A stretch of 64,000 nucleotides of DNA from Acheta domesticus (taxonomy: Eukaryota; Arthropoda; Insecta; Orthoptera; Gryllidae). Below the pieces are notes generated by a model. It did not search any database and was not told where the DNA came from. It saw only the letters and a list, made by a program, of their open reading frames with translations. Each line of letters opens with the position of its first letter. Position 1 is the first letter of the stretch. Below, piece after piece: positions 1,047 to 33,660 of this stretch. The translations under genes and the position numbers were made by a program. The DNA lies in assembly GCA_031308135.1 (NCBI GenBank), contig JAHLJT010000631.1:177817446-177881445 (forward strand). Reading direction: 5' to 3'.

Positions 1047-3045
1047 TCATAAAGTAGCCCTTCGCTTGTGTTTAACTGATGAAGTAAACATTTTTATATT
1101 TATTTTATTCAACTGTTGTTCTGTGTGGACACGCTTGTGTTTATTTAAACTGGACTTGTGACAGAAAGACTTCTCACAAACATTACAGCAATGTGGCCTT
1201 TCAATAGTGTGAATCCTCATATGTTCCTTGCAACGACCTTCTGTTTCAAAACTCTTTCCACATTCTGCACATTGATGTGGTTTTGCAGTATGGAGTTTCA
1301 AATGTTTCGCACAGGTCGCCTTTAACTTGAAAGCTTTCTTACATATATCACATTCGTAAGGTCTTTCATCAGTATGAGTTACTTGATGAGTCTCATAAGT
1401 TGATTTTCTCTTAAATACCTTGTCGCACACATAACATTGAAATTGTTTCTCAGATTTTTGAGATTGAGAACTCTGTGTTACTCTCCCTGAGTGAGTGAAA
1501 CTGTGTCGCTTGAGGCTCCATTTGTAGACAAAGCTAGCGCTACAAATTTCACATGTGTGTGATTTGTTGCTTGTGTGTCTGTAATAAATATGTATCTTCA
1601 AACTCCAGGATTTAGTAAATGTTGCGTTGCAAACTTGACATCGATACGGGTTATCGCCCTGATGGATTAGACTGTGTTTCTTCAAACCTGACACCGTTAC
1701 AAATGGAGCTTTACATACGTCGCAGATAAGATATTTCTCACCAGAATGAATTAATTTGTGCCTCGAGAGAAGTTGGGGTCTATCAAATGTTGCAGAACAT
1801 TTCTGACACTGATATGGGCGTTCACCTGTATGACGATAAATGTGCCATGTCAGACCGTGGCGTGTTTTGAATGTAGCTTCACATGCCTGACAGCTGTATA
1901 TTTTTGCAGTTTTGTGCTTTAAATTATGAACCTTCAAACTTTTAGCTGATACACACTCTTCATTGCAAATGTTGCATAGATAAAATTTATCATTACTTTT
2001 CTCCAACTCATGAGTATTGAAGTGGAATCTGAGAGAAGGCAGATATTTGAATTTAGCGTCCACAAGCAGGGCACTTGTATGACCCTTTAGGAGAGTGGAC
2101 GTAATTATGGACAACAAGTGATGCTAATGTAGTGAATGCTGCATTGCATTTTTTACATGAAATTGATTTTCTGCTTGAATAATTGAAAGTGGACTTACTT
2201 ATATTATTCACAAACAATCCAGTCCTACAAGTTTTTTGAGGTGATTTTTGAGTATTATGAAGAGATTTGTTTTCTAGGTAACCATGAGATGCATCGATAG
2301 TATTGAACATTTCTCTGTGATTTTTATTCAAATGCCTTCTTAGAGAATGTAGTTCTTTATAGCTTTTATCACATTTGTCACAATGATAGGGTTTTTTCGT
2401 TGCTGTGAACTAAGGCATGTTTTTTTAGAATTTTGTTCCTCTTGAATGAAGCATTACACAATGTACACTTGTAAGGTTTTCCCTTATGTATGGAGGTAAT
2501 ATGTCTCTTCAGCACAGTGGAACTTTTGAAATGAACTTTGCAAAACTCGCACTCGTTCAGTTTGTCATTTGTTTCGTTCGCCTTGGGAATGTTCTCTTCA
2601 GAGTTTAAGTGACTGAACGATAGTTGATGTTCTTGCAAGTCTTGATTCTGAGGTTGTTCATCGGTCTTTTCGCGAATATTTTTGACATCGTATGATAAAT
2701 TTGGTTTTTCATTTTTGTCGCCAGTTTGACTTCCGTATTCTTCAACTTCATTCTCTTTTTGTTCTATAAAATCCTGATTTACAACTACGTTTGATGGAGG
2801 CTCTGATTCAACATTCTTCTTACTTACATTTTCATCTTTACGACTCAACAAGAGAAATTTCAAGTTTGGAATTTCTTGATGTTTATCATTTGATCCATAA
2901 GAATGTTGTTGTCTTGTGTGTGAATCTGCAGCGAGCCGATTTGATTTTTTCGTTGACTCTTCATCATCAAAGTTACACGAATGCTCCTGTAAAGTCAGTG
3001 GGCTACGAAATGTATTTTTGCAGTAGTCACAGCAAAACGTATTAT
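1047..3045 (-). CDS. Prdm9-like: PRDM9-like gene, last exon: zinc-finger array (two 1-nt frameshifts)
   Basis: This is the terminal coding exon, about 665 codons. The acceptor TTTTTGCAG lies just above 3045, and the two bases AT complete a codon begun by the PR/SET exon. It opens with an isolated C2HC-type finger (FCCDYCKNTF...), matching the lone finger after SET in vertebrate PRDM9. An acidic linker of roughly 120 residues follows, then about 15 C2H2 fingers (C-x2-C...H-x3/4-H), many with TGERP-like linkers, and a TGA stop at 1047-1049. The frame breaks twice by one extra base: in an A6 run (2392-2397) and near 2058. Removing each base restores perfect finger spacing. The fingers should bind DNA sequence-specifically in the nucleus (family knowledge). 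The zinc-finger content is certain; joining it to the SET exons rests on splice phase and order. Confidence 0.88.
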
Positions 3046-3059
3046 CTGCAAAAATATAA

Positions 3060-4700
3060 AAGTACTCATTAAAAATTTTGTTTACTTTCTTCCTTTACTT
3101 TCTATCGTACTGTAAAATTGATCGAATGTCAAAAAATCACAAATAACAAGATTTTGAAAGAAATATGTTTTTAACACCTCAATATTTTATTTTCAAGGAT
3201 GTATGCCTGTTTTTCTGAGAACGACATTAGTAACTACAGAGTAAATAGTTTTTTGAAAACATGTACGCTGGAATCTTTTAATTTTAAGGGTATCTTAATA
3301 TGATACATGATTCATATTTCCGTTTTTTTAACGGGTCCAAATTATTTTCTTTAAATTTCCTTTTAAAATAAATGAAAATTCGCACATGAATATGGTAAAT
3401 TCACATTTTTCAATTAATCATTTCAGTGTTTGGGAATAGCAAAAGTTTTACTTTTTTACCTCGTACAACATTATTTTCGACAGATATTTTATTCCTGAAG
3501 CAGTTTCAAGAAAAATTTTTTAAAAAATATCAAGTTCATTTTGTGAAGCTTTAAAGGTTATTGCGTGATTCTGAATAACAACAGACATTCTCGTACTGGT
3601 TAGTTTCGTTATTTCTTTACTCTGACCTAGCTTTTAGATTTGCCTCATCCACTTGACAGCTGCTTATACACCGGCGCCCAAAATATATTTTTCTCATTTT
3701 TTGGGTTCCTATTGTTGAATTAAAAAACGACTTGAAGGAAATTATAGAAGAGAAAATGTCGTTCGAGCATTTCTGAAAATGCACAATTGTGTTTTCATTT
3801 TTGCAGAAAATGTTTGGGCTCTCGAGACTGAGAAATTGTTTGAAGAACAGGATCTCACTAATGCAATAATATATAAAAATGCGTATGATATAAATATTAA
3901 TGACGTGATTTTCCTGTATACAGTTTCCTGGCAGGCCCAGACTTTATTCTTTCTCTTATACCTCGTATCTTACTCCCTGTATACTTACGTAGACGAAAAA
4001 AGTGAAATATGGTACCGTTATTTTGAAATATACATATTTTGAAAAACTGTGCGTGATGTTAATGAAAGATTTAACTATTGATAATAGATGTCATTAAGAA
4101 CACAAGTTATGTATTTAATACTGTTTTTCAGGAAAGCGTTCCAAAAATGTACCTCACAGTAATTTCAAAAATTTGAAGATATTAACTGGCTGTAACTACC
4201 CCATTTTTACGATCGCAGGAGTCAAACTTTTAACAGAAAATCTCATCTCGTCTTGAGGAAGGTCGCAGCATGATGGCCAAAGCGCTGGCATCTGTTCCTA
4301 TGACGCCGAATCACCCGGGTAGCCATGAAGATACTGATTCCGGTCACGGAGCCTACGCTTTCATTTTACGGAAACATTGAGTATTTTGAACGTTTCTTGT
4401 GAATGTTTTGAAAATTCGCTGGGATTTAACGTAAAGTATCCCCCCCCCAAAATAAAAGATTAATTTCAAATTTAATAAAGGTTTTGGCCGAGCCAAATCA
4501 ATTGGGAAATGTTTTTTGGGAAAATCTTATTTATAGTTTAAATACACTGTTGTGTAGTTCTTCAACAGAGAAAACAAAGGATTTGCAAAAAGCAACACTT
4601 TTCTTGATATCTGGTCCCATAACACGTAATGTAGCGCCAGTGCTAAATTATTAAAATCCAGAAAATCAGATTACGCGGGCAAGATAGAACAATCTGAGAA
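3060..4700. other. Intron sequence, no gene seen
   Basis: This AT-rich sequence lies between the zinc-finger and PR/SET exons. A short GC-richer patch near 4255-4360 (gaggaaggtcgcagcatgat) looks like repeat debris. Small open frames here have no recognisable protein features. Confidence 0.5.
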
Positions 4701-4764
4701 CCGAACGTACGATGCGCGAGAACGAGTGGACAGTGGAACCGAGAGAGCGGGAGCAGGAAGTCGG

Positions 4765-5115
4765 TGAGTAGGCCCCGAGCACGGTGTAAGATATAATGGG
4801 TGTGTCAACTAGCCGCCTTTTGGACAGAATTTTTTAAGCCAGTTTGAGGCTAGTTCCTCGGCTTATCCGTACGGTGCGCACTGTTCGAGTTGGGCATTCA
4901 TGATGGCGTTTAGTAGCTTCCACCAGAGGTTACAAAGCTATTAAATGGATCACCATCTTGTCCCAAAAATGCCCAAGTCGTTCGCAGCGCTTACATAGCG
5001 AGAACTGTGAGAACTAGGCTCACATTAGCTTCAGTTTTAGACCGGGAGTGAACCCACCTATATCTCTTACACCGTGGCCCGAGCAAAGGGAGAGGAAAGG
5101 AGATGAAATGGCGGC
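4765..5115. repeat. Imperfect foldback element
   Basis: The segment gcacggtgtaagatata near 4779-4796 recurs inverted near 5058-5078 (tatctcttacaccgtggccc), within a GC-richer patch. The arms are imperfect, suggesting an old inverted-repeat element in the intron. Boundaries are approximate. Confidence 0.35.
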
Positions 5116-5861
5116 GGACTCGGTGGGAGCCGAAGTCGACCGATGAAGCGAAAGTGTCAAACGCGCTCATAAACAAAAATTAGTGACGGCGTTAATCTAG
5201 ATCGAGTGGAAACATTATGTGTCACGTGGACGTGTGCTTTCAATAGCGAAAGTGATAGAAAATTGAACTCTTTTTCAATACGGAGGTGTTCGAAAAAAAA
5301 AATCTGCGTTTTTGAAAAATTGAGTTCGAACGTTTTCGAAAATGCGCGAAAATTTTTAATTCTTTTAAAATGGATTTTTGAAAATAAAATAATTTAGTTC
5401 GTAACAAAATTAATTTTTGAAAAAGTAATATTGAAGGAAATGAGTAGTCTGTGTTAACAATGTATTAACCAATAAACTGAATCTAAAATTTAACTTTAAC
5501 AATGCAAACCATATTTTGAAACAATTACATTTGTAAACTTTTAAAAAAGTCAAAAGAAAATATCAAAATATCGTTTACGTCATGATATTGGGGGCAATTA
5601 GATCCATCCGTACAAAAAATTGGATAATGAAAAATCATGGATAAGTTTTTGAGAAACTATTTTTAATATATTTATTATTTCACTTAAAATTGAATCAAAA
5701 CTAATATTTTTTTTAAATGTACATGGCATTAAATTATAGAACTATTTGTGGGAAACGAATTTCGTGTTAAGAAAAAAAGCTGTATCTTCAAACATGTAGT
5801 TGGACGAGGGGATTTGATAAATTACAAACTATCGCATTTTTCAAAAATTCCGTGAATATTG

Positions 5862-6046
5862 CTATACTTCGGTTTTTCTTTCTTTGCGCGTGGGTGTTGG
5901 GGGTGTTATCAAAATGGAATAGCACTGCTCGATACAGTCGCGATCATGCGACTCCTAGCGGCACAACCGAGAACAACGCGAAATACCGTGAAATATTCCA
6001 TTTTGATGACACCTCCACGCGCAAAGAAAGAAAAACCGAAGTATAG
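5862..6046. mobile_element. Short MITE with ~55-bp inverted repeats
   Basis: The ends ctatacttcggtttttcttt and its reverse complement (ending ccgaagtatag) form long inverted repeats over roughly 55 bp with one small indel. They enclose about 70 bp. The TA-containing tips suggest a Tc1/mariner-type non-autonomous element. It lies 40 bp inside the intron after the SET exon donor. Confidence 0.7.
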
Positions 6047-6085
6047 GTGGGTGAAGCAGCGCCAAGAGTCGCAGAGTTTACTCAC

Positions 6086-6345
6086 ACGGCACGGGGTGGG
6101 CGAGCGGCGACGTGAAAGCCTCGAGCGAGATGCCCAGCTGCTCGCCCGAACTTGTCCCCGTACCACACCAGCAGCTCCTCGTGGGCCGGGATGTCGCGCT
6201 TGGTGCGGTAGTAGATGGCCCCGCGCCACTGAAACGCCGCCAAGTTCTGCTCCAGCACGTTGCGGGCGCAGTTGACGAAGCGCAGCCAGTTGGCGTGGCG
6301 GCAGTCGCCCGCGTCCACGTACAGCAGTCGTTTGCCCATCCACAG
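6086..6345 (-). CDS. Prdm9-like: PRDM9-like gene, exon with C-terminal half of PR/SET domain (1-nt frameshift)
   Basis: The acceptor TTGGCAG precedes 6345 and the donor GTGAGTAA follows 6086. The translation from CTG TGG ATG contains ANWLRFVNCAR, EQNLAAFQW, AIYYRTKRDI and ELLVWYGDKFG. These are the signature blocks of the PRDM7/9 PR/SET domain, including the NCAR substrate/cofactor motif and the tyrosines of YYRT and WYGD. The family methylates histone H3 (K4/K36). Just after KFG the frame slips: reading one base later gives EQLGISLEAF, the same spacing as vertebrate YGQELGI. The exon is 260 nt, but its flanking phases (0 in, 1 out) require 259, so the base at 6144 looks like an insertion. 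A short MITE sits in the intron 40 bp below the donor. Confidence 0.88.
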
Positions 6346-7049
6346 CTGCCAACCACGCACACGGTTCCGGGTTAGGGATATTACAATCTAGAGGAGCTAC
6401 AAGAGCTCATACTTTCTCACATTATTTGTAATGTTTGCAAGTTTCGGAAATTATAGGAGTATAATGAACATGAAACTTGTGCTATTTTTGAGAGTCCTTT
6501 GTTCTATCCGAAAAAAAAACTAAAGTCTCTTCACTTGCTGAGTGACACAAAAGAAATTTCACAATATTGGACACACTCTCGTGAGTGTTTAAATGTAATT
6601 CCTAGGCACAGTTCTGGTTAATTTTAAGTTCATTTCAACATTGAAGTTTATAAATATACTTACCAAAATGTTGTGAAACGTACCTTTTCCAACAACCCTT
6701 TTCATTCCTGTCACACTTGTAAGAAACCTTTTCCCTCAGACTGTATTTCCTTTGAATGACCTGCTATTTAGGTATGGGATCAACAACTATATGCGATTAT
6801 TTATGTATTGGGATCGATTTTTTGAAAATGGCCTGTGGGAAGAGTAGGCGCAATGGTCTGAGCCTCGTCACTAACGAAAACATTTTCTTATTTATTTACA
6901 GTCTCGTCTATTGCTGCATCGGTTTACTTTCACTCATAGCGGAGCGTTACTGCTGACTTAGCAGCCACTTTGATTGGCAGGTTGTAGAATTCGGTTCCCC
7001 ATGGTGCGTGGGACATTTTCGACAATAGCTACGTAGCTGTGTCTGATTC

Positions 7050-7225
7050 AAGCACTGTTTGGAGGAGAATTCTAGCGGCAGGCTACTCTGTTCGGAAAAT
7101 TTTCGTGTTTTCTTCTATCAATACCAAGAGAATACCCCATCAAATAGGCCACGGACTGCGCGAGATTTTTCCTTCCTCTTCCGGTGGCGGGCGCACAGTG
7201 TTCCAATGACGTTACGGAAGTGGGG
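7050..7225 (+). repeat. Dispersed repeat family 1, copy a
   Basis: This copy shares gagaattctagcgg, a diverged tatcaataccaagagaata and ttccttcctcttcc with copies at 8100-8300 (+) and 32820-33245 (-). The family looks like a tRNA-derived SINE or LINE-derived short repeat; this copy is the most diverged. Confidence 0.5.
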
Positions 7226-8094
7226 GGAAACATTCGTTTGGAAAATTCATAATTAACTGGTAACTTGACAATTGACTATTAACCTCATTTAACAGGTAAT
7301 TATTATTTAGAATGTTTATGATTCAATTACAATATGAAGAATTATATAATAGAAGAACTTTATTACATAACTCAAAGCAATCTTCGACTCTTTATTATAA
7401 TCAGTAATGTAATTCCACTTCCATTCTTCTCTTAAACAACATTTTTGGAAAATACAGTTTTCGCATTTTAGGACAAGAATATTTTATTCAATAGTATATA
7501 ATATAACGAATTAGTTCGTTCTGAAACAATAATTAATGTTAACTAATGTGTAACAAATGGGTACCCAGTAGGGGTCACATGAGGGAATTTTGACCTCATG
7601 CTCAATTATTTTTGATGCACAGTTTTGTTTGAGAATGTTGTAAATCCTCGTGATTTTTAATATCTTTCCATAATCTTCAATCTGCAAATTTCTTTACTCC
7701 TATGATTGCGAGCTATATCAATTCTCAGAATTTATTTATTTTAATCTCTCAAAGCTATGTAATGCATCCGTAGATTGGACTTTTTACATACTGCAGTTAT
7801 TTCAAACACACTAAACACGTCATTGTTCCAGCATCTACAAAGGAAATCTTTCTTCCCTAACAGAAAGAAAATTAACGGGTGTAGATGTTTTCCCACTTAT
7901 GTTGTCTGAAACACCGACAAAGGCCCACTGCCAAGGTTTTCGGTACCGGCGACCGCTATTTGGCCCTTCTCTCTCTCCCTCTCCCCTTTGCTCGAACTGC
8001 ATCTCCATGTGCCTACCTCGGAGGTGAAAAAGCTCCGTCATTTTTTGTCCAGTTGGCAATCGCTGGTCTAGATAGCTAGGTCAAGGTCTGTTGT

Positions 8095-8345
8095 AGTCTG
8101 AAGGAGAATTCTCGCGGCTGGCTGCATTGATCGGTAGTTTTCAGATAAATACCAGGCGAATACCGGAGCAGTACCCTCACAAACGGACCGCGCGCGATGT
8201 TTCCTTCCTCTTCCGTGTCCTATACTATCCCTTACTTACATGTACACACATGTCGGGAGCAAAGAACTTGTCCCGGCTGAGGCGGTGCCCTGCTGGTTGG
8301 AGAAAAATCTCGCTAGCTGTCGGTAGGCCGCTACACTTACGAGAC
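8095..8345 (+). repeat. Dispersed repeat family 1, copy b
   Basis: Homologous to 32820-33245 (minus). Shared landmarks are ataccaggcgaataccggag, cagtaccct and catgtcgggag. It lies in the intron just downstream of the zinc-knuckle/SET exon. Confidence 0.55.
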
Positions 8346-8378
8346 TAATAGCCTAAGCATTTGACTCACTAATCAAGT

Positions 8379-8612
8379 GGTGTCAAGATCTTCTACTGGT
8401 GGCAGTGGCACGCGTCGTGGCACCGTAGCATGCCATGAGCTTTTCTGCGCAACTAGCGTCGGGAAAGGAAAGTACTAGTAACCCCGCCGTTTTACAGTAC
8501 GGATGGCGTTGTCTCTGGTGGCGGGATAATGAACTGCGTGCTGGGGGCGATTTCATTGTGGCACTTGTGCCACGGACTCCCGCTAGTGGCATCAACCACG
8601 ACAACACTGCAC
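8379..8612 (+). repeat. Dispersed repeat family 2, copy a
   Basis: About 235 bp that align closely with 18918-19146: gtgtcaag, tactggtggcagtggcacgc, ccccgccgttttaca and ggtggcgggataatgaa all recur in order and orientation. No protein feature. Both copies abut exons of the PRDM9-like gene. Confidence 0.65.
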
Positions 8613-8647
8613 TAATCAATCAACGCTTGGCTGGGGTGGGGGCATAC

Positions 8648-8928
8648 CTGCCAGCTGTAGTCGGGCGTGGCGGCGCGGCGCAGCAGGCGTCCGGCGTAGG
8701 GCCCCAGGCGCAGGCGCGCCGGCAGCCACACGCGCGCCCAGACGCCGCGCCCGGCGTGCGGGATGGCGGACGCGGCCACGGCCAGCAGCGGAGGCACCGT
8801 CAGCGCCGCGCGGTCCTCCGGGCTGGAGCTCGCCGCCAGATCCGCCGGCACGCGCGCGTTCTCCACGGGCGTCAGCGGCCCGTGCGCCAAGCACTCGCCC
8901 GGCCACGCGAACCCGCACTCGTCGCACG
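8648..8928 (-). CDS. Prdm9-like: PRDM9-like gene, exon with zinc knuckle and N-terminal half of PR/SET
   Basis: The exon starts after TGTGCGCAG and ends at CAG|GTATGCC. It encodes CDECGFAWPGECLAHGP, a C-x2-C-x7-C-x2-H zinc knuckle with exactly the spacing seen just before the SET domain of vertebrate PRDM9. Next come an acidic stretch, RAALTVPPLLAV, IPHAGRGVWA, LRLGPYAGRL and DYSWQ, which align block by block with the first half of the PRDM9 PR/SET fold. The two leading bases CG complete a codon with the T left by the SSXRD exon (Leu-Ser-Cys), and the exon ends in phase 0, matching the next one. It is very GC-rich compared with its introns. Identification is strong from motif order; the acceptor lacks a good pyrimidine tract. 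Confidence 0.85.
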
Positions 8929-9054
8929 CTGCGCACACATGGCACCCGCGTCCCTCATCACCTTTTAGACTTTGATTTAACCATTGCACTTCAGGGTCAC
9001 AAGCTGGATGGAGAAAGGACACTCTCAGACCATGGAGCTTTGTTACGTCTTAGT

Positions 9055-9480
9055 TTTGGTACTGGAGCTCCCGATTGGATGATAATGCCCCTCCCCTCAA
9101 CTTCCAGTCCCCCCTGACCTTGAAGTGCCTGTACTTTTAAATCGGAGCATAAGGCCTGAGACATACGAGCGCACTTTAACGGACGTTAAAATGCGTCCTT
9201 TGCAGAGTACGCGCAAAAACCCAACTGCAAGATACAAATGTAACATAGCATACGAGCGCCCTGTGGAACATTCGTTGTGCTCTGCGTATGTATCCTGAAT
9301 ATTGACGACCGTAAAAATACGGACCGTAAAAAACGTCCGTTACGCGACGCTCGTGTGCTCGCAGCCTTAAATTTTCCTATTTTAGGTGTGTTAGGAGAGG
9401 GGACACAATTATCCTATCGATAGATTCAACTTCAGAAACTACGTTCCTGATTGGATAACAATGCCCCGTCTCCCAAGTTA
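9055..9480. repeat. Foldback repeat family also seen at 48578-48680
   Basis: The strings cccgattggatgataatgcc (near 9068) and ctgattggataacaatgccc (near 9447) match arms of the foldback at 48578-48680. The MITE at 9150-9369 lies between them. Boundaries are approximate. Confidence 0.4.
9150..9369. mobile_element. MITE with TAAGGC termini
   Basis: The ends taaggcctgagacatacgag and, inverted, taaggctgcgagcacacgag are imperfect inverted repeats of about 45 bp. The interior contains taacggacgttaaaatgcgt and a related inverted piece. It is a 220-bp non-autonomous DNA element in the intron above exon 8648-8928. Confidence 0.6.
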
Positions 9481-9489
9481 CAAAGTGTT

Positions 9490-11640
9490 GAAAATTTTAA
9501 TGAATAGCATCATAGCATCATAGACTACGCGTGGGGAATCTGTGCACTTAACCGGTCACAGAGCACTGAGGCGGCTATACTGATTGCCGTCTCAAAAATA
9601 TCGACTTTCTAGCTTTCCGGCGGGCAGCCTAAGGACAAAAATCTTACATTTTCATTTTGTGTAAGAAAGCACACAAGAAAACCAACAAAACCAGGAATCG
9701 GTTATTTCTGAAAGAGCCTAAGTCAATTTTTTTTGTTAAAATGATATTCAGGTGGAATAGACTTCTGTGGGTGTCAATACGCATTTTAATTACGATTGGG
9801 CACTCGTTAGATGATCACATAGCTAAGAAATGAACACCCATTTTTAGTTTATTTATGGAAGGGCACTAGTCAAATGACATAGGTCCTTTCATAAATTAAG
9901 AGTTTAACGTAGTTTGTGAGTTATGGTTATCAGCACTGAGTTTATTAACTACTGCTTAGCATTTTGTTTTTGCATTCGAATGTCACTGATTGTTGAATAA
10001 TGAGACAATGTCAGTGAGTCAATTTTTTCAAAAAGCTTTCCCGGGCCCGTAGCAACCAACGTCAGTCTTTTTACTTCGAGCAATAATGGCAGTAGAACCC
10101 AATTGATTGTCATCGTTTGTTGTTGATTTATAAGCAGTTGTGAATATAAAAACAGCCTTGCTCGTAGAAGTTTTAATGTCATGGAGCCTTCTGTTAAATA
10201 TTGTAAGAAAAGAAAGTGTAAGGGGATTTTATTTGTTAATTTAGCAACAGGGTTTATCAACTTTTTACTTTTCCGTATACCTACGTATACACGGTGTGAC
10301 AATCACATATTCAGTGAGCTCAAATAGCCCGCGTAGAGCGCGCCGACCAGCCAAGCATCGCCGACTACGCCATCCCTCCTCGGACCGACGGAAGGCACTT
10401 CAATTGCAGACTCGGACCGAGTAAGTCGTATTCCGAATAACGGTGGTGGATGCACGAAATATACCACGTGGCGAATAAGAAGAGTCGACGCCAGGAATAT
10501 TACTTGGATGGGACAACGAACTGCGGGAAAAGTTCCAGATGTGAGTTTTTTTTCTTTTTATTAGGTTGGAGTGAACGAGAGAATTACTAGCGGATTCGAA
10601 TCGAGAAAGCTATGACGGAATTCTGGAAGGCTACGCACCACGGGTTCAGCGTGTGGTGAAGGAATGCCACGGCCGAGATCGACCGTGCAGTGCACGCCGA
10701 AGGGTTTGGCTAAAGGGGACGTCAGATAAGATTCCGCGCAGGAAGTCTCCACCTCAAACGCCACCAAAGGTAGTATTAAAATTTGATTAATAATGCATCC
10801 GAGAGGGAGACACGCAAGTAGTTCAAGTAACTAGAACTAAAAAGTAGTGAAACAAGAAAGGAAAAGGAAACTGTATTAAATTAATACGAAAAAAAGGGGT
10901 TTTGTTAAAATAAAAAACACGAAAATTCGACAAGTTACTCTAGCTCGCCGTAATAGTTCAATAGTGCAGGCTCGAAACTTGTAGTATGTTTAAACGTGAG
11001 TGTAAATAAGACTGGTATCATTTTTTTATCAGAATAGTTAGTATATCAGAAAATGGTTAACATTAGTAGTGTAAGTTCTCAGTGTTGTATTTAATTATAA
11101 GAAAATTGTGGGTTTCTCATAATTATAGCTAAGAACAAAGTTTGTAGACAAGAGGTTCTGTATATAGTTTTGTTTTTGTTGTTGTTGTTTAGCTTGTAAG
11201 GCACAAGTTCCGCAAATTGAAGAAAAAGAAAAGGAGTATATTCAGATATGTTTTAAAGTTATATTGTGCACGAATGTATTCTGAGGGACACAGCTATTAC
11301 ATAATAATAGTGTTCCGTATTTGCTTCAAGAAACTTGTGAATAGATTATACATTATTCTTGAAAGATCCATTGGATTTCTTTTTTTTATGTGCTCATTTT
11401 TTTTTCTTACAGTGGCATCCTCTCACTCAATCCACCATTGAGCCCGCACCGTAATATCCACGAACAATTTCCTTGGTTTACTATTTTTCACAATAGTGAA
11501 GAACATCTACGGAGCAAGCTGTACTCCCTAAATATGGCATACGCCTGTGTTTTGAGTGTAAGCGGACTCGGCACTTGTGATGCGAGCGTCTCCGTGTTCT
11601 ATCTTTCGTTCGTGTTAGACAGGGTCCGCGGTACGTAACA
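9490..11640. other. Intron sequence, no gene seen
   Basis: Intron between the SSXRD and zinc-knuckle exons. A GC-richer stretch at 10320-10790 has open frames but no recognisable motif and could be part of an old retroelement. The rest is AT-rich. Confidence 0.4.
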
Positions 11641-13375
11641 GTACGTGAGAGAGAACACGTGAGGCACGTCGCTAACGGAGTGATATACGTAGTATAGGGA
11701 AAGTTATGTAATGCTGCGCGAAGAAATGGCCAATTTTCGGCGGGAAAAATTCATTGCCGGGCCGTGAAAACGAAAGAGTGGATAAAACCAATTGCTAAAT
11801 TAAGAAAAAAAATCCCCTAACACGTGGTGTACCCAGAAACCCTCTTTTGTGGGTCCTTTATATCTAAAAACTAATTGAAAGGAAAACGTCCGTCTGTCTG
11901 TCCGTCCGTCTGTGAACACTGCTAGCGCCTAAATCATACGCACGATTTCTTCCAAAATGGATATTCCCCGGTCTATCTGGTTCTAGTCGAAGCTTTGAGA
12001 TTTTGAAAGATTCTTCAAAATTTGGGGGTACTTTACATGAAGCCCCCCGGACATTTTCAAAATTATTTCAAAAACGGCTTCAAATTGTTTCTTTAACCAT
12101 TTAGTAGGGGTAGTGCTAAATGTACCCTATGAGATGACATAAACGACATATTGCTGTATTCTTTTGTTTTTTCAAAAATTGCAAAAATTTAATTTTTTTG
12201 ACTTGTCTCTCACGTCGTTAATATTTACACTAGAGGCGAATTGTTCACATTATTACATTTATGAGTACATGTGCTTTAAATAATGTCAAGTAAAGTTTCT
12301 CGAAAACACAACCGTTTTCTGTGAAAAGTAGCTCAAAATTTTGCATTTCTAGAAACGCTCAAACGCCATTTTCTCATATATGGCTGCAATTTTTTTCTTC
12401 AAACTTTTGTAACGGATAGTGCTAATTACACTCTTTAGTATAGCGTAAAGTTTATTTTGAGTATTTTTTTTTGTTTTTTCAAAAATTATACATATGTAAT
12501 TTTTAAAGGATCTCTCACATCTTTAATATGCACATTACCAGCAATTTGTAAACATTATTATATTTGGGAGTGTAAGTGCTTCAAATAACTTCAAATAAAG
12601 TATTTTGAAAACTCAAAAATTTTCTGGGAAAATGAGCTTCAAATGTCGCATTTTTAGTAGAGCTAAAACGTAATTTTCTTTAAAACGGCACATAATTTTT
12701 AAAACAAAATTGCCATTTAGGGCTAGGTTTTTGTGTTCTTTAATATTCTAAAATTAATATTTTCGTTCTACCAATAGGAAACCGAAAAATTAAGAAAATG
12801 ACGAAAAAATGGGTATACTTTAGGGGTGATAGATCGCAGCTGGCAAGAAAGAGTATGTGGCAATTCGTAATAGCTAGCGAAGACCCAAGGAAATAGAAAA
12901 CTAATACGGGGAAGTCTGTGCCATTCTGTAGCACCACTTTTTCGTGATCAGCACCCGTCAATGAATTTTTTCGTGCAGTATTACAAAAAAAAAAAACAAC
13001 CGAAATTTCGCCATTTTTTTCGCGCAGCATTACATAACTTTCCCTATACTAAGTATATCACTCCGTGTATACGTACGTATACGGGAAAGTAAAAACGGCT
13101 CCAAATTTTTCAAAGAAAATTACTATTTAGGACGAGGTTTTAATGTTCTTTAATATTTTAAAACTAATATTTCCGTTCTACCATTAGGAAAACGAAAAAT
13201 TAAGAAAACGTTAAAAAAAGGACTTTGAGCGGCGATAGGCACGAGTATGTGGCAAGTCCGAATAGCTAGCCGAGACGAAAATAAATATAAAGCTAATACG
13301 GGAAAGTCTGTGCCATTCTGTAGCACCACTATTACTCCGTATACGTACGTATACGGGAAAGTAAAAATGTCAAAT
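11640..13375. mobile_element. Long-inverted-repeat element family 3, copy A (composite)
   Basis: The end at 11676-11781 (cggagtgatata...gggaaagttatgtaatgctg) is repeated inverted at 12935-13065, giving arms of about 105-130 bp. The interior holds diverged ~300-bp modules (acggct-caaatttt..., tagtgctaa, ttttcaaaaatt) and a short (GTCY) run. A second copy of the right end follows at 13080-13373, ending in tacgtatacgggaaagtaaa. No transposase frame is visible, so it is non-autonomous. Confidence 0.65.
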
Positions 13376-13444
13376 GTTGAATTTCACATTTTGGCGAAAA
13401 TTCAACGAATGATTACACAGTAAATGTGCATTTCCCATACTTAC

Positions 13445-13645
13445 ACAACTCTTCTGAATCATCCCCATCAGTATCGAAGAGTTGCTCTCGATAATTTATT
13501 GGTTTTCTTTTTCGCAGGGATGAACGTCTTATATTTTCTTCACACGTCTGTGCCCCAGCTTCCACGTCAATGTCGTCAACGGTATACACAGGTTCTAATT
13601 TGCTATTAGACGAGCGATTGGATTTCCGCACTGGGGTATTTGTGG
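13445..13645 (-). CDS. Prdm9-like: PRDM9-like gene, SSXRD-like exon
   Basis: The exon is bounded by TTTTACAG and T|GTAAGTATG. It encodes 66 complete codons plus one base at its 3' end, beginning TNTPVRKSNRSSN and ending RRSSLRKRKPINYREQLF followed by an acidic run DTDGDDSEEL. The SLRxRKxxxYxE core followed by acidic residues directly before the zinc knuckle corresponds to the SSXRD region of vertebrate PRDM9, which is linked there to repression and nuclear localisation. Phase agrees with both neighbours: two bases CC complete GCC with the G of exon 14681-14796, and the trailing T joins CG of exon 8648-8928. Composition is less GC-rich than the SET exons. The SSXRD assignment is by motif and position, not by a profile search. 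Confidence 0.75.
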
Positions 13646-14680
13646 CTGTAAAATATAATAAGCTTCTGTTAATGTTACTGCAAATTTGAGATAATATGTC
13701 TGGAAAACGAGCAAGAAGAAAATTTTGTATTTAAAGGGCTCTTGTCCTTTCGTTCATTCTGTTGAATACATATCTAAGATAAATAAAAATATAGTGTTTT
13801 CAAACTTAATAAACAGGAAAACCTGTTGTAATTGCTATTTAATGTATGTGCCCGTACCCATAACATGCATTTTTTCGTGGTCTCGCTTTTCATAGAGACG
13901 CGCGTTAAGAGTCACAGTTTTAAAGCAGTCACTTGGACTTGAGGTCAGTAATCAGGCCCATTTCTTGGATTAACTTGTATTACACAGTAACAGCTTTCTC
14001 AATTTTTTTATTGTTAGCCTTAGGTGACAATTAAGGATGTTGAAATTCTATGGAGATTATTGTTCATTTAGTATCTTCCTGCGAGATGATTCATTTTCTG
14101 ATTACCTACCACAGAGAAACATTTTCCATTTTAACTAACGATTGGTGATTTTTATGTGTACGCTGTAGTTTCCCCTATAGCTTGGTATCAAATCTGAAGT
14201 AGGAAAGAACAGAAGCAAAAAATAATGTGAATACGTCGCGAATCAGTTTCCAGTATTTTGTAATTTAAGTGTAAATAAGAAGGTGCAAGTGTAAAGGAAT
14301 GATCAATATTTAAAATCCAATTAATAGATAAAATGCGCGTATTCAAATTCTAGTGCTGGTGAAAACGTGAACACATTGAGATCCTTCCCCATACGCCAAA
14401 TATAGTTTTTAATTTTTTTTGCTTTAAATACAGAATACTTAAGAATGTGTGTAAGCAACGTAAACATCAAAATTGGACCAAAAGAGCCCTTTGTATACTT
14501 CAATAACCTCAATTAGGCAGTCATATATAACGGGTATTCTCTGGAACCAATAATGGCAGTGTAGGACACGACTCACTGTACGAAGTATTAAATAACTTTA
14601 TTTCAACTAAAAGTAAATTTTTATTTTTGATTTTTTCAAGGCTAACTATATTTTATCTTAGGAATACTAACCTGCCTTAC

Positions 14681-14796
14681 CTTTCTTAGAACCACTTTTC
14701 CCATCAGAGCACTCGCTGTCTTTTAGGATTTCCTGTTGCACCTGCTCCTCAACGCATACAATGATCTTAGCAAAGACTTCTCTGATTTGCCTACAC
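14681..14796 (-). CDS. Prdm9-like: PRDM9-like gene, N-terminal exon of unknown function
   Basis: This is a 116-nt exon with acceptor GGCTTTTCAG and donor AAAG|GTAAGG. It encodes CRQIREVFAKIIVCVEEQ, then QQEILKDSECSDGKSGSKK. The first part is probably helical; the C-terminal part is acidic and basic low-complexity and leads into the SSXRD-like exon. One incoming and one outgoing base fit both neighbours' phases. I do not recognise a domain. It occupies the place where vertebrate PRDM9 has the region between KRAB and SSXRD, but it shows no KRAB consensus. Confidence 0.68.
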
Positions 14797-15369
14797 CTGA
14801 AAAGCCGAAACAAATTCTTACATACACCAGTTTTCGAATAAAAGAAATTTAAAGAATAATTTATGGATTCTTAATTATACTCGAATATCCACATCTTGCA
14901 ACGTACTCTCAGAAATGGTGAAATTGAATTTTATCCGCCTCCCGTTCAATTTGTTTCAATTAAATGAATATTTACATAAGTAGCACTTAAAGATCATTTC
15001 AAGTATAATTTTGTTTCAATGTGCTGACACAAATTCATTTTTTTCACAAGATATCACTCAATTTTGAGTCTTATCAAAAACCAAAGTGAACGACAATCGT
15101 CCTTTAAAATATTCTTCAAAACACCTCAGCTCAGAGGAGAAGCTCTGAAGTCTATTGACTTTTGAAAGACAAATCTAACGGTGAAAGTAGTTGCAGGATT
15201 TGTGCAGTTGATGAGATTGCATGGTTAAACGGAAGCATATTTTTGTGGTCACACGATCATTTAAACGACCCTCGACAGAAAGAGAGTCTCTTTCTGTGTC
15301 TGCAGGGCCGGGAACAGTGTTGCCAGACGTACCAGGATCCTGGAATTTTTACCTGAATTTTAATGAAGA

Positions 15370-15402
15370 TGCCATGTACCAGGATGAAGTCATCCTGGTA
15401 CA
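15370..15402. repeat. 26-bp perfect inverted repeat
   Basis: gtaccaggatga and tcatcctggtac are exact reverse complements separated by two bases. The word taccaggat recurs nearby at about 15330 and 15755, suggesting fragments of a small transposon. Confidence 0.5.
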
Positions 15403-15900
15403 CTTAAATACCGGTGTAAGTTTACAGTAATTGATGATGTACGATTCGTACATTTTTTATTCAATAATTTAACACAAATGCTAATATTACAAATAACTGT
15501 GATATTGGTGCCGTAAAACATTAAGCGTGACATCGGATGGTATTTTTCCAGCACATACTATAGGAGTAAAAGGATATAACGTCTTAATCTTCCATTTATG
15601 GTGGAATGACTTTTTCTTTCCACCATGCTTCCATTCAGTTTATTGTAATAAAATGACTCGATATCGAGTTAAATTTAACGAACGTTAAAAACATAATATT
15701 ATAATATGCACAAATTTAGAATCGATTGTCTTTGGTACCAGGCAGTTTAGTGGAAGTACCAGGATTTTTGATAGTTGGTACTGGGTTACACATTTAATCA
15801 TCTGGCAACGCGGGCCTGGAGTCTCTGCCGTCAGCAGAGCGAGCGGGCCAGAGGCGGTCGTCGCGGATCAACAAATGCCAACACCGAAGGCACCGCCCTT

Positions 15901-16139
15901 AAGGTGGTTCCACACATTCGGCATTCGCTGAGCCGCGAGCTACTGCTCGCCCGATCCCGACCAGCTGATGTGTTCGGAGAAGGTTCGCTCCCTTCGATGT
16001 GTCCAAAAGACCGACACGCGGTGGGTAAGGCGAGCGCCGAATGTTCGTCAGTCGGCAAATAGCAATCCATCCACACTACTCGGGATTCGGCGAGCGGTTG
16101 CTTGCTGTTCGCCGAATAGCGAATGTGTGGAGCCGCCTT
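15901..16139. mobile_element. MITE with GGYGGYTCCACACATTCG ends
   Basis: The left end aaggtggttccacacattcg and the right end, read inverted (aaggcggctccacacattcg), match closely over the tips. Inner arms rich in gctcgcc/ggcgagc also pair. The length is about 239 bp with no coding capacity. It interrupts a GC-rich exon-like stretch. A target duplication could not be resolved. Confidence 0.7.
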
Positions 16140-16214
16140 TACGCTTCCGCCACAGACGCCACCGCGCTGGCCAGCGAGCCCTCGCTCAGGCGGATGCAAA
16201 GGTCGGGGCTGCAG
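16139..16214 (-). pseudogene. Candidate exon interrupted by a MITE
   Basis: After a good minus-strand acceptor (TTTACGTTCTCAG) a GC3-rich reading frame begins: CSPDLCIRLSEGSLASAVAS, then VAEA. It runs straight into the inverted-repeat element at 15901-16139, and GC-rich sequence resumes on the far side. The incoming phase (one base) would match the outgoing phase of exon 17788-17928, so it may be a lost or alternative exon of the PRDM9-like gene. No donor can be defined. It could also be chance open sequence. Confidence 0.3.
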
Positions 16215-17787
16215 CTGAGAACGTAAAGGTGTTCTAGGGAGATTGATGGTACCGAGCAGCGGGTGGTGAAAGTTGAAGTATATAGTTTTGACAAGCTGTG
16301 CGACGAAATTAGTATTTCTCTGGTAAAACTAAGGTACAACCCTCTTTAGCGAATATATACCCGATATATGCAAGTAATGTAGTCTATGGTTCATTTCCCG
16401 TAGGCACGAAAAGTTGTCTACATTTGTTGGTACGATTCTGTGTTGTAGCTGGTATAAATAAAACTTTTATACCGAGTTGTGATAGTCCTAATTTGATCAC
16501 ATTTGCAATTTTAAAAATATTGATACACATTTTAGAAGCGTGTGCTTTAATATATGGTTTACTTAATAGCTACTTTGTTATTTTGTTACCGATTTATCAT
16601 TTTGTGCAAAGGCAATAACTGATTACTAATTTGAACAGTGCACGAGTTGGGCAGGACGTCATATTTAGCATCTCCCGTAAAATTATTCTGCAAAACCCAG
16701 GTGTCTTACATGTTTCCATATTCAATGATCTTCCTTTGTGTCTTGACGACTTGCGTTGAAAATTGTAATTCCACAAGTATATTCCGTGAAATGAAGAGCT
16801 CATAATCTGTCGCTAGTGAAGAAAAATTAACTCGCACAAAAATGGTATCTACTTATCTTAGTAGATACACCCCAGAAAATGACAATAGAATATTAACTCA
16901 CAGAGGGACATTCTACGTTCCCTACTGTACACTGCACATATCGTAGGGTACATTTTCATGTTATCATGCTAATTACTCCAGACACAGCTCTGAATTAAAC
17001 ATTGATTTTTCATTTATACATCGAAAACAGTGTAACGTTGAGAAAAGTTCAACATTCAAAATGAAAGCTGAGAAATTTGCCTATGAGATATTTCACTACG
17101 TTTTTCTCGTTTCCAATAGATTTCGTATTATTTGCAAAGGAAAATTGAGAATTTAAAAAAAAGGTAAATTGCTTTAAGTTGTTCGTTAAAGGTCGTCTTG
17201 CAGAATATTAACTCATTTGTTTTACATAATTGTAGTATTATCCTAGCACAAGTTGTAGAGAATTAAGAAATGACTTAGAGAACGAGTTATTATTACGGAA
17301 TGACGAGTAATTTTTTTTATTTAAACGATAAAAAGAATTTGTAATGTTAGGACAGTTTCAAATCTTGTTTTGCATGCATTGATCACAAAAACCTCCTCGG
17401 TTTTTCACCAAGCACAAAATCTATCTGTTAGATTCCAGGAATATGACATTCGTCGTCGAGTGTTATTATATAAATAAAGTAAAATTAAATAACAGAAATA
17501 TAAGAAAAGAAGAATATCCCATTAGTCTTATTTTGTAGAATCTTAAGAAGTAGGTCTGATCATTTTTGTTAAAAAATATACCACGGACTAAATGCAAATA
17601 TTGTCTCTTGTCGCTTTGGCAACAAATCTCACAACAAATTTCGGTTTTATCCCACTATATATCAGAAAAAATTATCTTTTTGCATCAAGTAAAGTATGGC
17701 ATCTGCTTCTACTCCCGCGTCAATCCAAATGTGTGTCCAGTTCATATAAGCCGTTTTGGCGAACGTGAGCAATTATGGAGCACTCAC

Positions 17788-17928
17788 CTCTCCAAGGGCT
17801 CCTCGCTGAAGCCGTAGAAGGGCCCCGTGGCGTCGAAAGGGTCCACGCCGAAGAAGCCCGGCCGGGCCTCTGGCACCTCATTCTTAGGCGGCTGCGAATG
17901 CACCAAAGCAAGCTCAACATGGCACTTG
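17788..17928 (-). CDS. Prdm9-like: PRDM9-like gene, most upstream confident exon
   Basis: The exon has an excellent donor (GAGAG|GTGAGTGC). It encodes KCHVELALVHSQPPKNEV followed by a Gly/Phe/Pro-rich stretch containing GFFGVDPFD and GPFYGFSEEPLE. An alternative acceptor (ATTCGCAG) would start it at 17891. The outgoing two bases AG complete Arg with the first G of exon 14681-14796, giving an uninterrupted frame into the SSXRD and SET exons. No known domain is recognised. Third codon positions are strongly GC, like the other exons of this gene. Its membership in the gene is inferred from phase and order. Confidence 0.6.
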
Positions 17929-18671
17929 CTGCATTGTTTTAAATTTTAAAATAAATGCAAAGCTCTGAATAATTTTCTGCATATCAAACTAGATTTTTCT
18001 GCCCCTCGAATGTCCCATGCACTTGTATTACTTTACCAGAATAAAAATATGGAATATTTTATGTGCCCGTTATGAAAACGTGTGGATATTTGGACGTACT
18101 GTACATTAATTCGTAATGAAGCAGTAACTGAGTTCTAGTAGTAACTGAATTTGCCGTAATGTCAAACATTGGAATGTTTTTTTAAAGAAAGGAAACTTAT
18201 TTGGAAGACGTCTAGGTGAATAGTTCATGTTGATTCCATTTTTTTCCATGCAGTCTTTTTACAGCCAAGGAACGGCTGAAGTAACAGATAAACGGGCGAG
18301 ACAGTTGTGTCGCCCCTAGGGTCAAACGGCTCCCTCAAAGTATGACACGGAAAGTTCTGAATAACTAGAAAATCCAGGAGAGCAGAAAAAAAATTGAGTA
18401 TGACACAGAGATTTAAAAGATCTTTCGCAAAAAATGCATTTCTAAAAACTAGCCCTTTTAAATCATTGTTTAAATAGTGAAAATAACTACACTGGCACCC
18501 AACTATCAGTGTGTTCAATACCACGTGCTGTGAGATGAATAAACTTTGAAGAACATGAAACAGAATATCCAAAAAGTTCTCGTTGTGTAGATTACGGCGT
18601 AGAAAACATTCGTCGTGTTCCTTTTGGTAGACTAAACTTTTAGGTGATGTGGATATTGCAGTGGCCCTCAC

Positions 18672-18891
18672 CTCGATGGCACGTGGTGGCGAAGGGCTCG
18701 GCGCGGTGGACGGGGGAGGAGGCGGCGGGCAGCGGGGGCGGCGGCCGTGGCCCCGTCCCCGGTTCCGATCCCGGCCGCGCCAGGAGGAGCTTGGGCGGCT
18801 GCGTGCACAGGAGGCCGTGGAGGCACGGGGCCTGGCATGCCCGCGCGATGGTGCGGCCTTGATGCTGAGACTCGGCCTTGGCGCCCGCCCT
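18672..18891 (-). CDS. Candidate further upstream exon (GC-rich, Pro/Ala-rich)
   Basis: This is a 220-nt GC-rich block bounded on the minus strand by GTGTTGCAG and GAG|GTGAGGGCC. All three frames are open. The frame with the highest GC at third positions reads RAGAKAESQHQGRT, then a Cys-containing segment (ACQAPCLHGLLC) and a Pro-rich tail. That frame leaves one base at the donor, which does not join directly to exon 17788-17928, so either another exon lies between them or a different frame is used. It could be the 5' part of the PRDM9-like gene or an unrelated exon. No domain is recognised. Confidence 0.35.
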
Positions 18892-18917
18892 CTGCAACAC
18901 CACGAGCACTTCAGCGA

Positions 18918-19146
18918 GTAGTGTCAAGGTCTTGTACTGGTGGCAGTGGCACGCTCCGTAGCACCGTGCAATGCCACGAGCTCCTCTGCGCCACTAGCGT
19001 CGGGAGAGGGAACTATTAGGAACCCCGCCGTTTTACAATTGGGATGGCGTTGCCTCTGGTGGCGGGATAATGAAATGCGTGGAGGGGCGATTTCGTTGTG
19101 ACACTCGTGCCACGGACTCCCGCTCGTGGCATCGACCTTGACAAAA
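18918..19146 (+). repeat. Dispersed repeat family 2, copy b
   Basis: Copy of the repeat at 8379-8612 in the same orientation, starting about 27 bp above the acceptor of candidate exon 18672-18891. Similarity ends near the word acaaaactgg. Confidence 0.65.
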
Positions 19147-24629: not shown

Positions 24630-26432
24630 TTTACTTTCCCGTATTCGTACATTCGGAGTAATGTACTTAGTATAGGGAAAGTTATGTAATGCTACGCGAA
24701 AAAACGGCGGATTTTCAGCCGAAAAAAATTCATTGCCGGGCCCTGAAAACGAAAAAGTGGATCAATTCACTTTCTAAATTAAGACAAAAACCCCTAACAC
24801 GTGGTGTAGCCAATATCCCTTTTCCCTTAGTTTTTGACTCCGAAAAACCAATTGAAAGCAAAACGTCCGTCTGTCGGTCTGTCCGTCTGTCGGTCTGTCC
24901 GTCTGTCGGTCTGTCCGTCTGTCGGTCTGTCGGTCTGTCGGTCTGTCGGTCTGTCCGTCTGTCGGTCTGTCGGTCTGTCGGTCTGTCCGTCTGTCCGTCT
25001 GTCGGTCTGTCGGTCTGTCGGTCTGTCGGTCTGTCGGTCTGTCGGTCTGTCGGTCTGTCGGTCTGTCGGTCTGTCGGTCTGTCGGTCTGTCGGTCTGTCC
25101 GTTCGTCTGTGAACACTACTAGGACCTAAACCATAGGTACGATTTCTTCTAAAATGGATATTCCCCAGTCGATCTGGTTTGAGTCGAAGCTTTGAAATTT
25201 TGAAAAAGATTCTTTAAAATTTGGGGGTATTTTACATGAAGTCCCCCGGACATTTCCAAAATTTCTCAAAAACGGTTAAATTTTTTAAAAATTTCTAGTA
25301 AAAAAAGTGTAAAATACACTTAAGGTGACATAGGTCCGATTTTCACGGATAACTTCGAATTTTTGAAAATTGCAAAAGTTTAAAATTTTTACGGCGTCTT
25401 TCTGGAACTACAAAATTGAAGATAGAGATTTTTCTTTTAAATAAAATTTGTTGTCCAAAGTGAATTGTTTCATTAAGGTCATGCACATTTTTTTGAAAAG
25501 TTTAGTCGTTTTCGTGCAATATTGCGTACAATATGTGCAATTTTAAATAATTACGAAAATAATATTTTCTCAAAAACGGCTCCAATTTTTTCGTTAAACT
25601 TTTGTTAGGTATAGTGTCTAATGTATTTTATGAGATGACAAAAACGCCATATTGCTCTATTCTTTTGTTTTTTCAAAACTTGCAAAAATGTAATTTTTTC
25701 GACTTGTCTCTCTGTCGTTAATATTTACATTAGACTTGATGTGTTGGCATTATTATATTAAGGAGTACATGGGCTTTAAATAATTTTAAGTAAAGTTTCT
25801 CGAAAACACAACCGTTTTCTGTGAAAAGTAGCACAAAATTACGCATTTTCAGAAACACTCAAACGTTATTTTGTCATATATGGCCGCAATTTTTTTCTTC
25901 AAACTTTTGTAACGGATAGTGCTAATTACACTTTTTAATATGACGTAAAGTTTATTTGAGTTTTTTTTTGTTTTTTCAAAAATTACATAATTGTAATTTT
26001 TTTGAAAGATCTCTCACATCTTTAATATGCACATTATCAGCAATTTGCAAAAAAATATTATATTTGTGAACGTAAGAGCTTCAAATAACTTAAAACGAAA
26101 TATTTTGAAAACTCCAAAAATTTCTGTGAAAAAGAGCTTCATATTTCGCATTTTTAGTAGAGCTAAAACGCCTATTTCTTTAAAACGTCACAAAATTTTA
26201 AAAAGAAAATTGCCGTCTAGGACAAGGTTTTTGTGTTCTTTAAAATTCTAAGATGAATATTTCCGTTGTACCATTAGGAAAACGAAAAATTAAGAAAATG
26301 TAAAAAAATGTACTTTGGGCGGCGATAGATGGTAGTTGGCAAGAGTATGTGGCAATGTTGAATAGCTAATGCAGACCCAAGGAAATAGAAAACTAAAACG
26401 GGAAAGTCTGTGCCATTCTGTGACACCACTAG
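24630..26432 (+). mobile_element. Element family 3, copy C, carrying an expanded GTCY microsatellite
   Basis: Starts ttactttcccgtattcgtac only about 40 bp after copy B ends, in the same orientation, and finishes gccattctgtgacaccacta. It retains all internal modules. The short tetranucleotide seed of the other copies is expanded here (24868-25110). Confidence 0.7.
24868..25110. repeat. GTCTGTCSGTCT tetranucleotide array
   Basis: About 240 bp of GTCT/GTCG/GTCC units. Every frame is open, giving artefactual Ser-Val-Cys-rich or Asp-Arg-Gln-Thr-rich frames that are not genes. Confidence 0.95.
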
Positions 26433-30270: not shown

Positions 30271-30271
30271 T

Positions 30272-30344
30272 AAAGATTCTGTAGAATCTTTAGTAGTTTT
30301 GTAGCAATATTATAAAGATTCTTTAGAATCTTTATAATATTGCT
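30272..30344. repeat. Two adjacent near-perfect palindromes
   Basis: 30272-30291 (aaagattct, gt, agaatcttt) and 30303-30344 (20-bp arms agcaatattataaagattct around tt) are perfect inverted repeats sharing the same core. They sit at the 5' truncation edge of the LINE fragment. They could form hairpins; origin unknown. Confidence 0.75.
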
Positions 30345-33245: not shown

Positions 33246-33435
33246 ATCCACCTCTCCCGGTAATTCCATCTAGCTGCGTATGAGAGACCTTCGGGACTCG
33301 AAAGTTAAGAACAGTGCACGATGGTGTAGGCGAATCGGTGTTGCCACTGTGCAATGGCAGCCGGTTGAAGGAAGATTGAAACGCTGACGAAAGAGGGCGC
33401 AGGACGCAGTGGAGAGGAGCGAGTAGATCGGCTAC

Positions 33436-33660
33436 CGCCGCCTTCGCCGCCGCCTTCGCCCGCCGCCTTCGCCCGCCGCCTTCGCCCGCCGCCTTCGCCC
33501 GCCGCCTTCGCCCGCCGCCTTCGCCCGCCGCCTTCGCCCGCCGCCTTCGCCCGCCGCCTTCGCCCGCCGCCTTCGCCCGCCGCCTTCGCCCGCCGCCTTC
33601 GCCCGCCGCCTTCGCCCGCCGCCTTCGCCCGCCGCCTTCGCCCGCCGCCTTCGCCTCCGC
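33436..33660. repeat. 13-bp GC-rich minisatellite
   Basis: About 17 head-to-tail copies of gccttcgcccgcc, nearly perfect. Because 13 is not a multiple of 3, each frame cycles through the same 13-residue Gly/Arg/Ala-rich pattern; long frames through it are artefacts. The G-rich strand is the minus strand. Confidence 0.95.

What the first reader, a model, noticed from the sequence alone, without database searches (positions are those of the whole stretch)
1047..18891. Insect gene with PRDM9 architecture: SSXRD-like + zinc knuckle + PR/SET + long C2H2 array
Seen: exon-by-exon matches to the PRDM7/9 block order with phase-consistent splicing, NCAR and YYRT/WYGD motifs, and an isolated finger after SET. 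Known: in many vertebrates PRDM9 directs meiotic recombination hotspots by H3K4/K36 methylation, and the gene is often lost. An insect copy bearing both SSXRD-like and SET modules with about 16 fingers bears on how old that system is. No KRAB was found here.
Basis: partly seen in the sequence, partly recalled or inferred. Interest (0 to 1): 0.85.

Follow-up and report, generated by a model that had tools for sequence, protein, structure and literature searches.

The report
PRDM9-class gene in a probable insect
A gene in what is probably an insect genome carries the histone-writing domain of PRDM9, the protein that sets recombination sites in mammals, next to a long zinc-finger exon, but no KRAB domain was found, its fingers are not the repeat kind typical of fast-evolving PRDM9, and its reading frame is broken three times in this assembly, most likely by assembly errors.

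Summary
On the minus strand, six exons (17928 to 1047) encode an SSXRD-like stretch, the zinc knuckle, a complete PR/SET domain and one terminal exon with an isolated finger plus 15 C2H2 fingers. Knuckle-PR/SET scores 124 bits to PRDM9, against 76 (PRDM12) and 65 (PRDM11), and groups with PRDM9+PRDM11 in a small tree (91/90). All three catalytic tyrosines are kept.

Three claims need correcting. Splicing is not phase-consistent at the SET-finger junction: literal splicing stops at the end of the SET exon, and the finger exon breaks twice more. All three breaks are single extra bases repeating a neighbour. A tandem array in this window shows the same error type, 4 extra bases and 0 substitutions in three otherwise identical copies, so assembly error looks likelier than pseudogenisation. 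SSXRD is weak (11.8 bits, cut-off 23). The array is not a minisatellite (mean finger identity 47%).

KRAB was not found. KRAB of the PRDM9 type is already in print for insects (PMC8835667). A new member of a known kind: probably a finger-targeted H3K4/K36 methyltransferase; hotspot control is unproven.

The parts
18672..18838 (-). possible first coding exon E1 (ATG at 18838, donor phase 2)
   Evidence: phase fits E2; ATG and 78% GC; no homology, speculative
17788..17928 (-). exon E2, N-terminal region without known domain
   Evidence: open, phase-consistent, GT-AG; no Pfam match
14681..14796 (-). exon E3, without known domain
   Evidence: open, phase-consistent, GT-AG; E2+E3 no Pfam match; the wider frame alone had a sub-threshold SAPS match, 16 bits of 25.6
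13445..13645 (-). exon E4 with SSXRD-like motif SLRKRKPINYRE
   Evidence: Pfam SSXRD 11.5 and 11.8 bits, below the cut-off of 23
8648..8928 (-). exon E5: zinc knuckle and N-terminal half of PR/SET
   Evidence: PDB phmmer to PRDM9; acceptor lacks a pyrimidine tract
6086..6345 (-). exon E6: C-terminal half of PR/SET (NCAR, YYRT, WYGD)
   Evidence: PDB phmmer to PRDM9; the SET frame ends in a stop at the strong donor
6145..6147 (-). frame break 1, after GDKF
   Evidence: the +1 frame continues as GEQLGISLEAF, like PRDM9; stop by literal splicing; run located
1047..3045 (-). exon E7: isolated degenerate finger plus 15 C2H2 fingers, stop codon at the low end
2392..2397 (-). frame break 2, between fingers
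   Evidence: two overlapping open frames, both finger-coding; run located
2060..2061 (-). frame break 3, inside a finger
   Evidence: CPAC in one frame, FKYLPSLRFHFNTH in the next; run located

Best explanation
This is an arthropod, probably insect, orthologue of the PRDM9/PRDM11 ancestor. Shown: homologous knuckle and PR/SET with all three catalytic tyrosines, and a terminal exon with 15 array fingers in the PRDM9 exon order. Inferred: the array binds a DNA motif and the SET domain trimethylates H3K4/H3K36 on nearby nucleosomes, as in PRDM9. The three frame breaks are most likely assembly errors and the gene is intact in the animal. Without a detected KRAB, with only a weak SSXRD and with a diverged, non-repetitive array, it more likely acts as a stable-address histone writer (germline chromatin or transcription) than as a fast-evolving hotspot selector.
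For: Knuckle+PR/SET 124 bits to PRDM9 against 76 and 65 for PRDM12 and PRDM11. Tree: window with PRDM9+PRDM11, 91/90. Human Y276, Y341 and Y357 (numbering checked on a recalled human sequence) align to Tyr in GPYAG, IYYR and VWYG. All four zinc ligands intact in 14 of 14 in-frame array fingers. Breaks: 3 of 3 are one extra base repeating a neighbour; in the 131-bp array, 4 of 4 differences in copies 6-8 are of the same kind with 0 substitutions and 0 deletions, while copies 1-5 are identical. Array: mean pairwise nucleotide identity 47%, highest 65%, over 91 pairs of 14 fingers in register, no repeated 14-mer, diversity at positions -1, 3, 6 is 0.238 of the total against about 0.214 expected. 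In vertebrates, with one possible exception, only complete orthologues show rapid finger evolution (PMC5519329, abstract and passages).
Against: The literal gene does not encode a SET-finger fusion. Exons E2 to E6 up to break 1 (940 bases), 549 bases of the neighbouring gene matched in one frame and a 244-codon open frame next to it show no break, so errors would have to cluster. The array that shows errors is repetitive and harder to polish than unique sequence. No expression data. The tree has only eight or nine rows and inside the clade joins mouse PRDM9 with PRDM11 rather than with human PRDM9, so its resolution is poor. Absence of KRAB rests on scans that can miss a divergent domain. A reviewer quoted in PMC5519329 notes that slow fingers do not prove that recombination is not targeted.
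Confidence: 0.55

Rival explanations
1. A complete PRDM9 that directs meiotic hotspots: a KRAB exon exists but was missed, and the breaks are assembly errors.
For: Ancestral-type KRAB is reported from insects (PMC8835667). The 5' end of the gene is not settled here. With 45% and 60% of positions randomised only 1 of 3 planted KRAB copies outranked the noise in each trial.
Against: No KRAB in Pfam scans of the minus strand, 13649-52900 and 54001-63998, while human PRDM9 KRAB (recalled) gives 31 bits. Weak SSXRD; array not minisatellite-like.
Confidence: 0.2
2. A recently broken gene (pseudogene), one more lineage losing PRDM9.
For: Three frame breaks in 2.26 kb of E6+E7, none in the other coding stretches looked at; PRDM9 is lost repeatedly in vertebrates (PMC5519329).
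Against: No in-frame stops apart from those the breaks cause, ligands kept in 14 of 14 in-frame fingers, GT-AG intron ends kept. All breaks are one-base duplications, the error type seen in this assembly.
Confidence: 0.17
3. Two genes: a SET-only protein ending after exon E6 (like ZF-less PRDM9 relatives) and a separate zinc-finger gene.
For: Literal splicing ends just after SET; ZF-less PRDM9 orthologues are reported in C. elegans and opossum (PMC2779102, section read).
Against: The +1 frame GEQLGIS matches the PRDM9 post-SET sequence and then meets the finger exon in the right phase; the isolated finger sits about where PRDM9 has its own.
Confidence: 0.06
4. A member of another PRDM class.
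For: The tree is small and lacks PRDM2, 4, 10, 16 and MECOM among others, and all named invertebrate PRDMs.
Against: About 48 bits between PRDM9 and the next class among 15 PDB sequences, and the knuckle aligns only with PRDM9 and PRDM11.
Confidence: 0.02

Closest known systems
PRDM9 (human, mouse; PDB 4ijd, 6nm4, 4c1q)
   Same: Knuckle with the same spacing (human and window), PR/SET with all three catalytic tyrosines, isolated finger after SET, array in one terminal exon.
   Different: KRAB not found; SSXRD weak; fingers diverged, not near-identical repeats; isolated finger degenerate; frame broken as assembled.
PRDM11 (PDB 3ray)
   Same: Knuckle and PR domain align, 65 bits; joins the same clade.
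   Different: About half the score of PRDM9; PRDM11 arose from PRDM9 within vertebrates (PMC5519329, passages).
Partial PRDM9 of percomorph fish (PRDM9 beta)
   Same: No KRAB found; array without concentrated diversity at contact sites.
   Different: Fish beta genes also lack SSXRD and all carry substitutions at catalytic tyrosines (PMC5519329, passages); here all three are kept.
Invertebrate PRDM9 of Nematostella, Lottia, Capitella (PMC2779102)
   Same: PRDM9 orthologue with finger array outside vertebrates.
   Different: Those show concerted evolution among fingers; this array shows none.
Termite PRDM9 genes (a report recalled from memory; not seen in any call)
   Same: Insect PRDM9, full-length as recalled.
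   Different: Could not be compared; searches returned no paper.

Membership tests
PRDM9/PRDM11 class | PR/SET domain closest to PRDM9 | tested here: met
   124 bits against 76 for the next class; small tree 91/90
PRDM9/PRDM11 class | zinc knuckle before PR/SET | tested here: met
   C-x2-C-x7-C-x2-H, aligned with PRDM9 and PRDM11; Pfam knuckle model 13.4 bits, human PRDM9 18.6, both below its cut-off of 25.8
PRDM9 | catalytic tyrosines Y276, Y341, Y357 | tested here: met
   GPYAG, IYYR, VWYG in the alignment; numbering
PRDM9 | SSXRD motif | tested here: inconclusive
   11.8 bits, cut-off 23, positions 8-23 of 31; 151 of 5000 shuffles score as well against human SSXRD, and 2 of 2100 six-frame pieces score higher
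PRDM9 | KRAB domain | tested here: inconclusive
   none found; control human KRAB found; divergent controls partly missed
PRDM9 | C2H2 array in one terminal exon after an isolated finger | tested here: met
   15 fingers plus isolated degenerate finger, exon 3045-1047; joined to SET in frame: not met as assembled
hotspot-directing PRDM9 | array of near-identical, fast-evolving fingers | tested here: not met
   mean nucleotide identity 47%, highest 65%, no repeated 14-mer; between-species rate not testable
hotspot-directing PRDM9 | germline expression and motif-centred recombination | not testable with these tools
   no RNA-seq or recombination map

The most novel reading that the evidence does not exclude
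A protostome PRDM9 that lost KRAB but kept a catalytic SET and a long, fixed finger array, used as a stable-address H3K4/K36 writer in the germline: an evolutionary half-way state that separates SET-finger function from hotspot turnover.
Probability: 0.3. Interest if true: 0.55.

Novelty: new member of a known kind. Interest (0 to 1): 0.38.

Why it matters
PRDM9 appears lacking in Drosophila (PMC2779102, section read), and honeybee work took its data as consistent with absence of a PRDM9-like mechanism in insects (PMC4406589, passages read). A PRDM9-class gene with a complete SET domain in an insect-like genome offers a place to test whether KRAB and repeat-like fingers, rather than SET plus fingers, make a hotspot selector.

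Tried and rejected
KRAB as an N-terminal domain: phmmer of three recalled KRAB sequences against 2100 six-frame pieces (best E 0.46) and Pfam scans gave none. The Pfam scans left 52901-54000 uncovered. Another PRDM class: rejected on score. Protein database searches: full-length read, region 1-345: 7999 candidates scored, none passed; exon E5: 267 candidates, none passed; exon E6: 1 of 4 candidates passed (P0001). P0001 shares 51% over 67 columns with the window, the window's highest identity to any row, yet the tree puts it outside the PRDM9 clade at an open fork, so I did not use it as an orthologue. An in-frame weak donor at 6092 (CCC|GTGCCG) would join SET to the finger exon; rated unlikely against the donor at 6085. 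TRF listed 0% indels for the 131-bp array, which first misled me; direct comparison showed 4 extra bases. A first finger comparison (mean 42%) had one finger out of register; one search replaces it. Rfam and tRNA scans of the window found nothing.
Full report
Gene model. On the minus strand I find exons E2 17928-17788, E3 14796-14681, E4 13645-13445, E5 8928-8648, E6 6345-6086 and E7 3045-1047, with GT-AG intron ends. Donor phases 2, 1, 1 and 0 agree with the next exon from E2 to E6. A GC-rich E1 with ATG at 18838 fits in phase but has no homology. The acceptor of E5 lacks a pyrimidine tract, so its exact start is uncertain.

Class. The knuckle-PR/SET region matches PRDM9 chains in the PDB at E=6e-35 (124 bits), PRDM12 at 76 bits and PRDM11 at 65 bits; among the 15 sequences listed the knuckle is aligned only in PRDM9 and PRDM11. 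A tree of eight sequences puts the window with PRDM9+PRDM11 at 91/90, and at 87/90 with the partial P0001 added. The tree is small and joins mouse PRDM9 with PRDM11 rather than with human PRDM9, so it supports the clade but not its inner order. The window is 46% identical to human PRDM9 over 154 columns. The residues aligned with human Y276, Y341 and Y357 are all Tyr (numbering on a recalled human sequence).

SSXRD and KRAB. Pfam SSXRD gives 11.8 bits (E 0.19; cut-off 23), against 60.6 for human PRDM9. For one pre-named family this E-value is roughly 1e-5 (my division by 24736 families), but a plain alignment to human SSXRD is matched by 151 of 5000 shuffles, and two of the window's 2100 six-frame pieces score higher. 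I call it SSXRD-like, helped by its position just before the knuckle. KRAB: no KRAB match at E up to 1 in three-frame minus-strand Pfam scans of 13649-52900 and 54001-63998. Human PRDM9 KRAB is found at 31 bits. A planted KRAB, whole or as two halves, outranks all window pieces; with 30% of positions randomised 3 of 3 copies do, with 45% 1 of 3, with 60% 1 of 3.

Fingers. E7 has 16 C-x2-C sites. The first follows SET by about two dozen residues, as in PRDM9, but reads CDYCKNTFRSPLTLQEHSC without the usual last His. Fourteen of the fifteen array fingers lie in one frame and these keep both Cys and both His. The array is not repetitive: mean nucleotide identity 47%, highest 65% over 91 pairs in register, no repeated 14-mer in 1997 bases, and TRF lists no array there. 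Contact positions -1, 3 and 6 hold 0.238 of residue diversity against about 0.214 by chance.

Frame breaks. The SET frame runs ...WYGDKFGRAAGHLARGF... to a stop at the donor; the next frame reads GEQLGISLEAF, like human GQELGIKW (recalled) and P0001 GKELKI, and meets E7 in the right phase. E7 then changes frame at the runs 2392-2397 and 2060-2061, the first between fingers and the second within one. Each break is one extra base beside an identical base. The 131-bp array at 60992-62289 is an internal control: copies 1-5 are identical, copies 6, 7 and 8 differ only by 4 single extra bases of the same kind and by no substitution or deletion, while copy 0 and the last partial copy at the array's edges have 5 and 4 substitutions. 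Mutation would be expected to give substitutions first, so these 4 look like sequencing errors, and the gene's breaks look the same. Against this, repeats are harder to polish; the 492-bp duplication differs by one substitution and no indel; and 940 bases of E2-E6, 549 matched bases of the neighbouring gene and a 244-codon frame beside it are unbroken. I put assembly error at about 80% (judgement).

Known work. Baker et al. (PMC5519329; abstract and passages) find rapid finger evolution, with one possible exception, only in vertebrates with KRAB, SSXRD, SET and fingers. Oliver et al. (PMC2779102; passages and section 9) report concerted finger evolution in Nematostella, Lottia and Capitella, none in tunicates and some fish, apparent absence in Drosophila, and ZF-less orthologues in C. 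elegans and opossum. PMC8835667 (section 2.1 and passages) catalogues ancestral-type KRAB, which it assigns to PRDM9, SSX and coelacanth groups, and names insects and mussels among its holders; as SSX is restricted to mammals there, the insect ones are PRDM9-type by its grouping. PMC4406589 (passages) took honeybee data as consistent with absence of a PRDM9-like mechanism in insects. PMC2082429 (passages) found 3 PRDM genes in arthropods. A termite PRDM9 report is recalled only; searches returned no paper.

Organism. No call names the source. The arthropod reading rests on the neighbouring Ig/FN3 gene, which resembles sidestep by recall, and on the finding's own statement.

Verdict. A real PRDM9/11-class gene, probably intact in the animal, with catalytic residues kept and a diverged long finger array. 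Hotspot control is unproven and, on the vertebrate rule, less likely than not.

Noticed in passing
60992-62289: 131-bp tandem array, about 10 copies, carrying the start of what looks like an Ig-coding exon of the neighbouring gene; three copies hold 4 single extra bases and no substitutions, a gauge of assembly error.
   Followed up: yes
52889-56424 (-): Ig and FN3 exon and an open frame read as membrane and tail of a cell-adhesion gene on the same strand; sidestep-like by recall.
   Followed up: partly
54581-55574: 492-bp tandem duplication, two copies differing by one base.
   Followed up: partly
8648-8928, 6086-6345 versus 1047-3045: Sharp composition split inside one gene: GC3 0.97 and 0.87 in the SET exons, 0.34 in the finger exon pieces.
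   Followed up: no
24865-25099 and 33435-33655: Octamer array (GTCGGTCT, 29 copies) and 13-mer array (17 copies).
   Followed up: no
8376-8546 and 18917-19087: 171-base repeat, 85% alike, in the intron after E5 and just upstream of the possible E1; perhaps a transposon remnant.
   Followed up: no
about 11.7-13.3, 23.0-24.6, 24.7-26.4 and 39.9-41.3 kb: Dispersed repeat family with several copies.
   Followed up: no
about 29874-30290 (-): Reverse transcriptase match, Pfam RVT_1 32.9 bits, in a frame read through stops.
   Followed up: no
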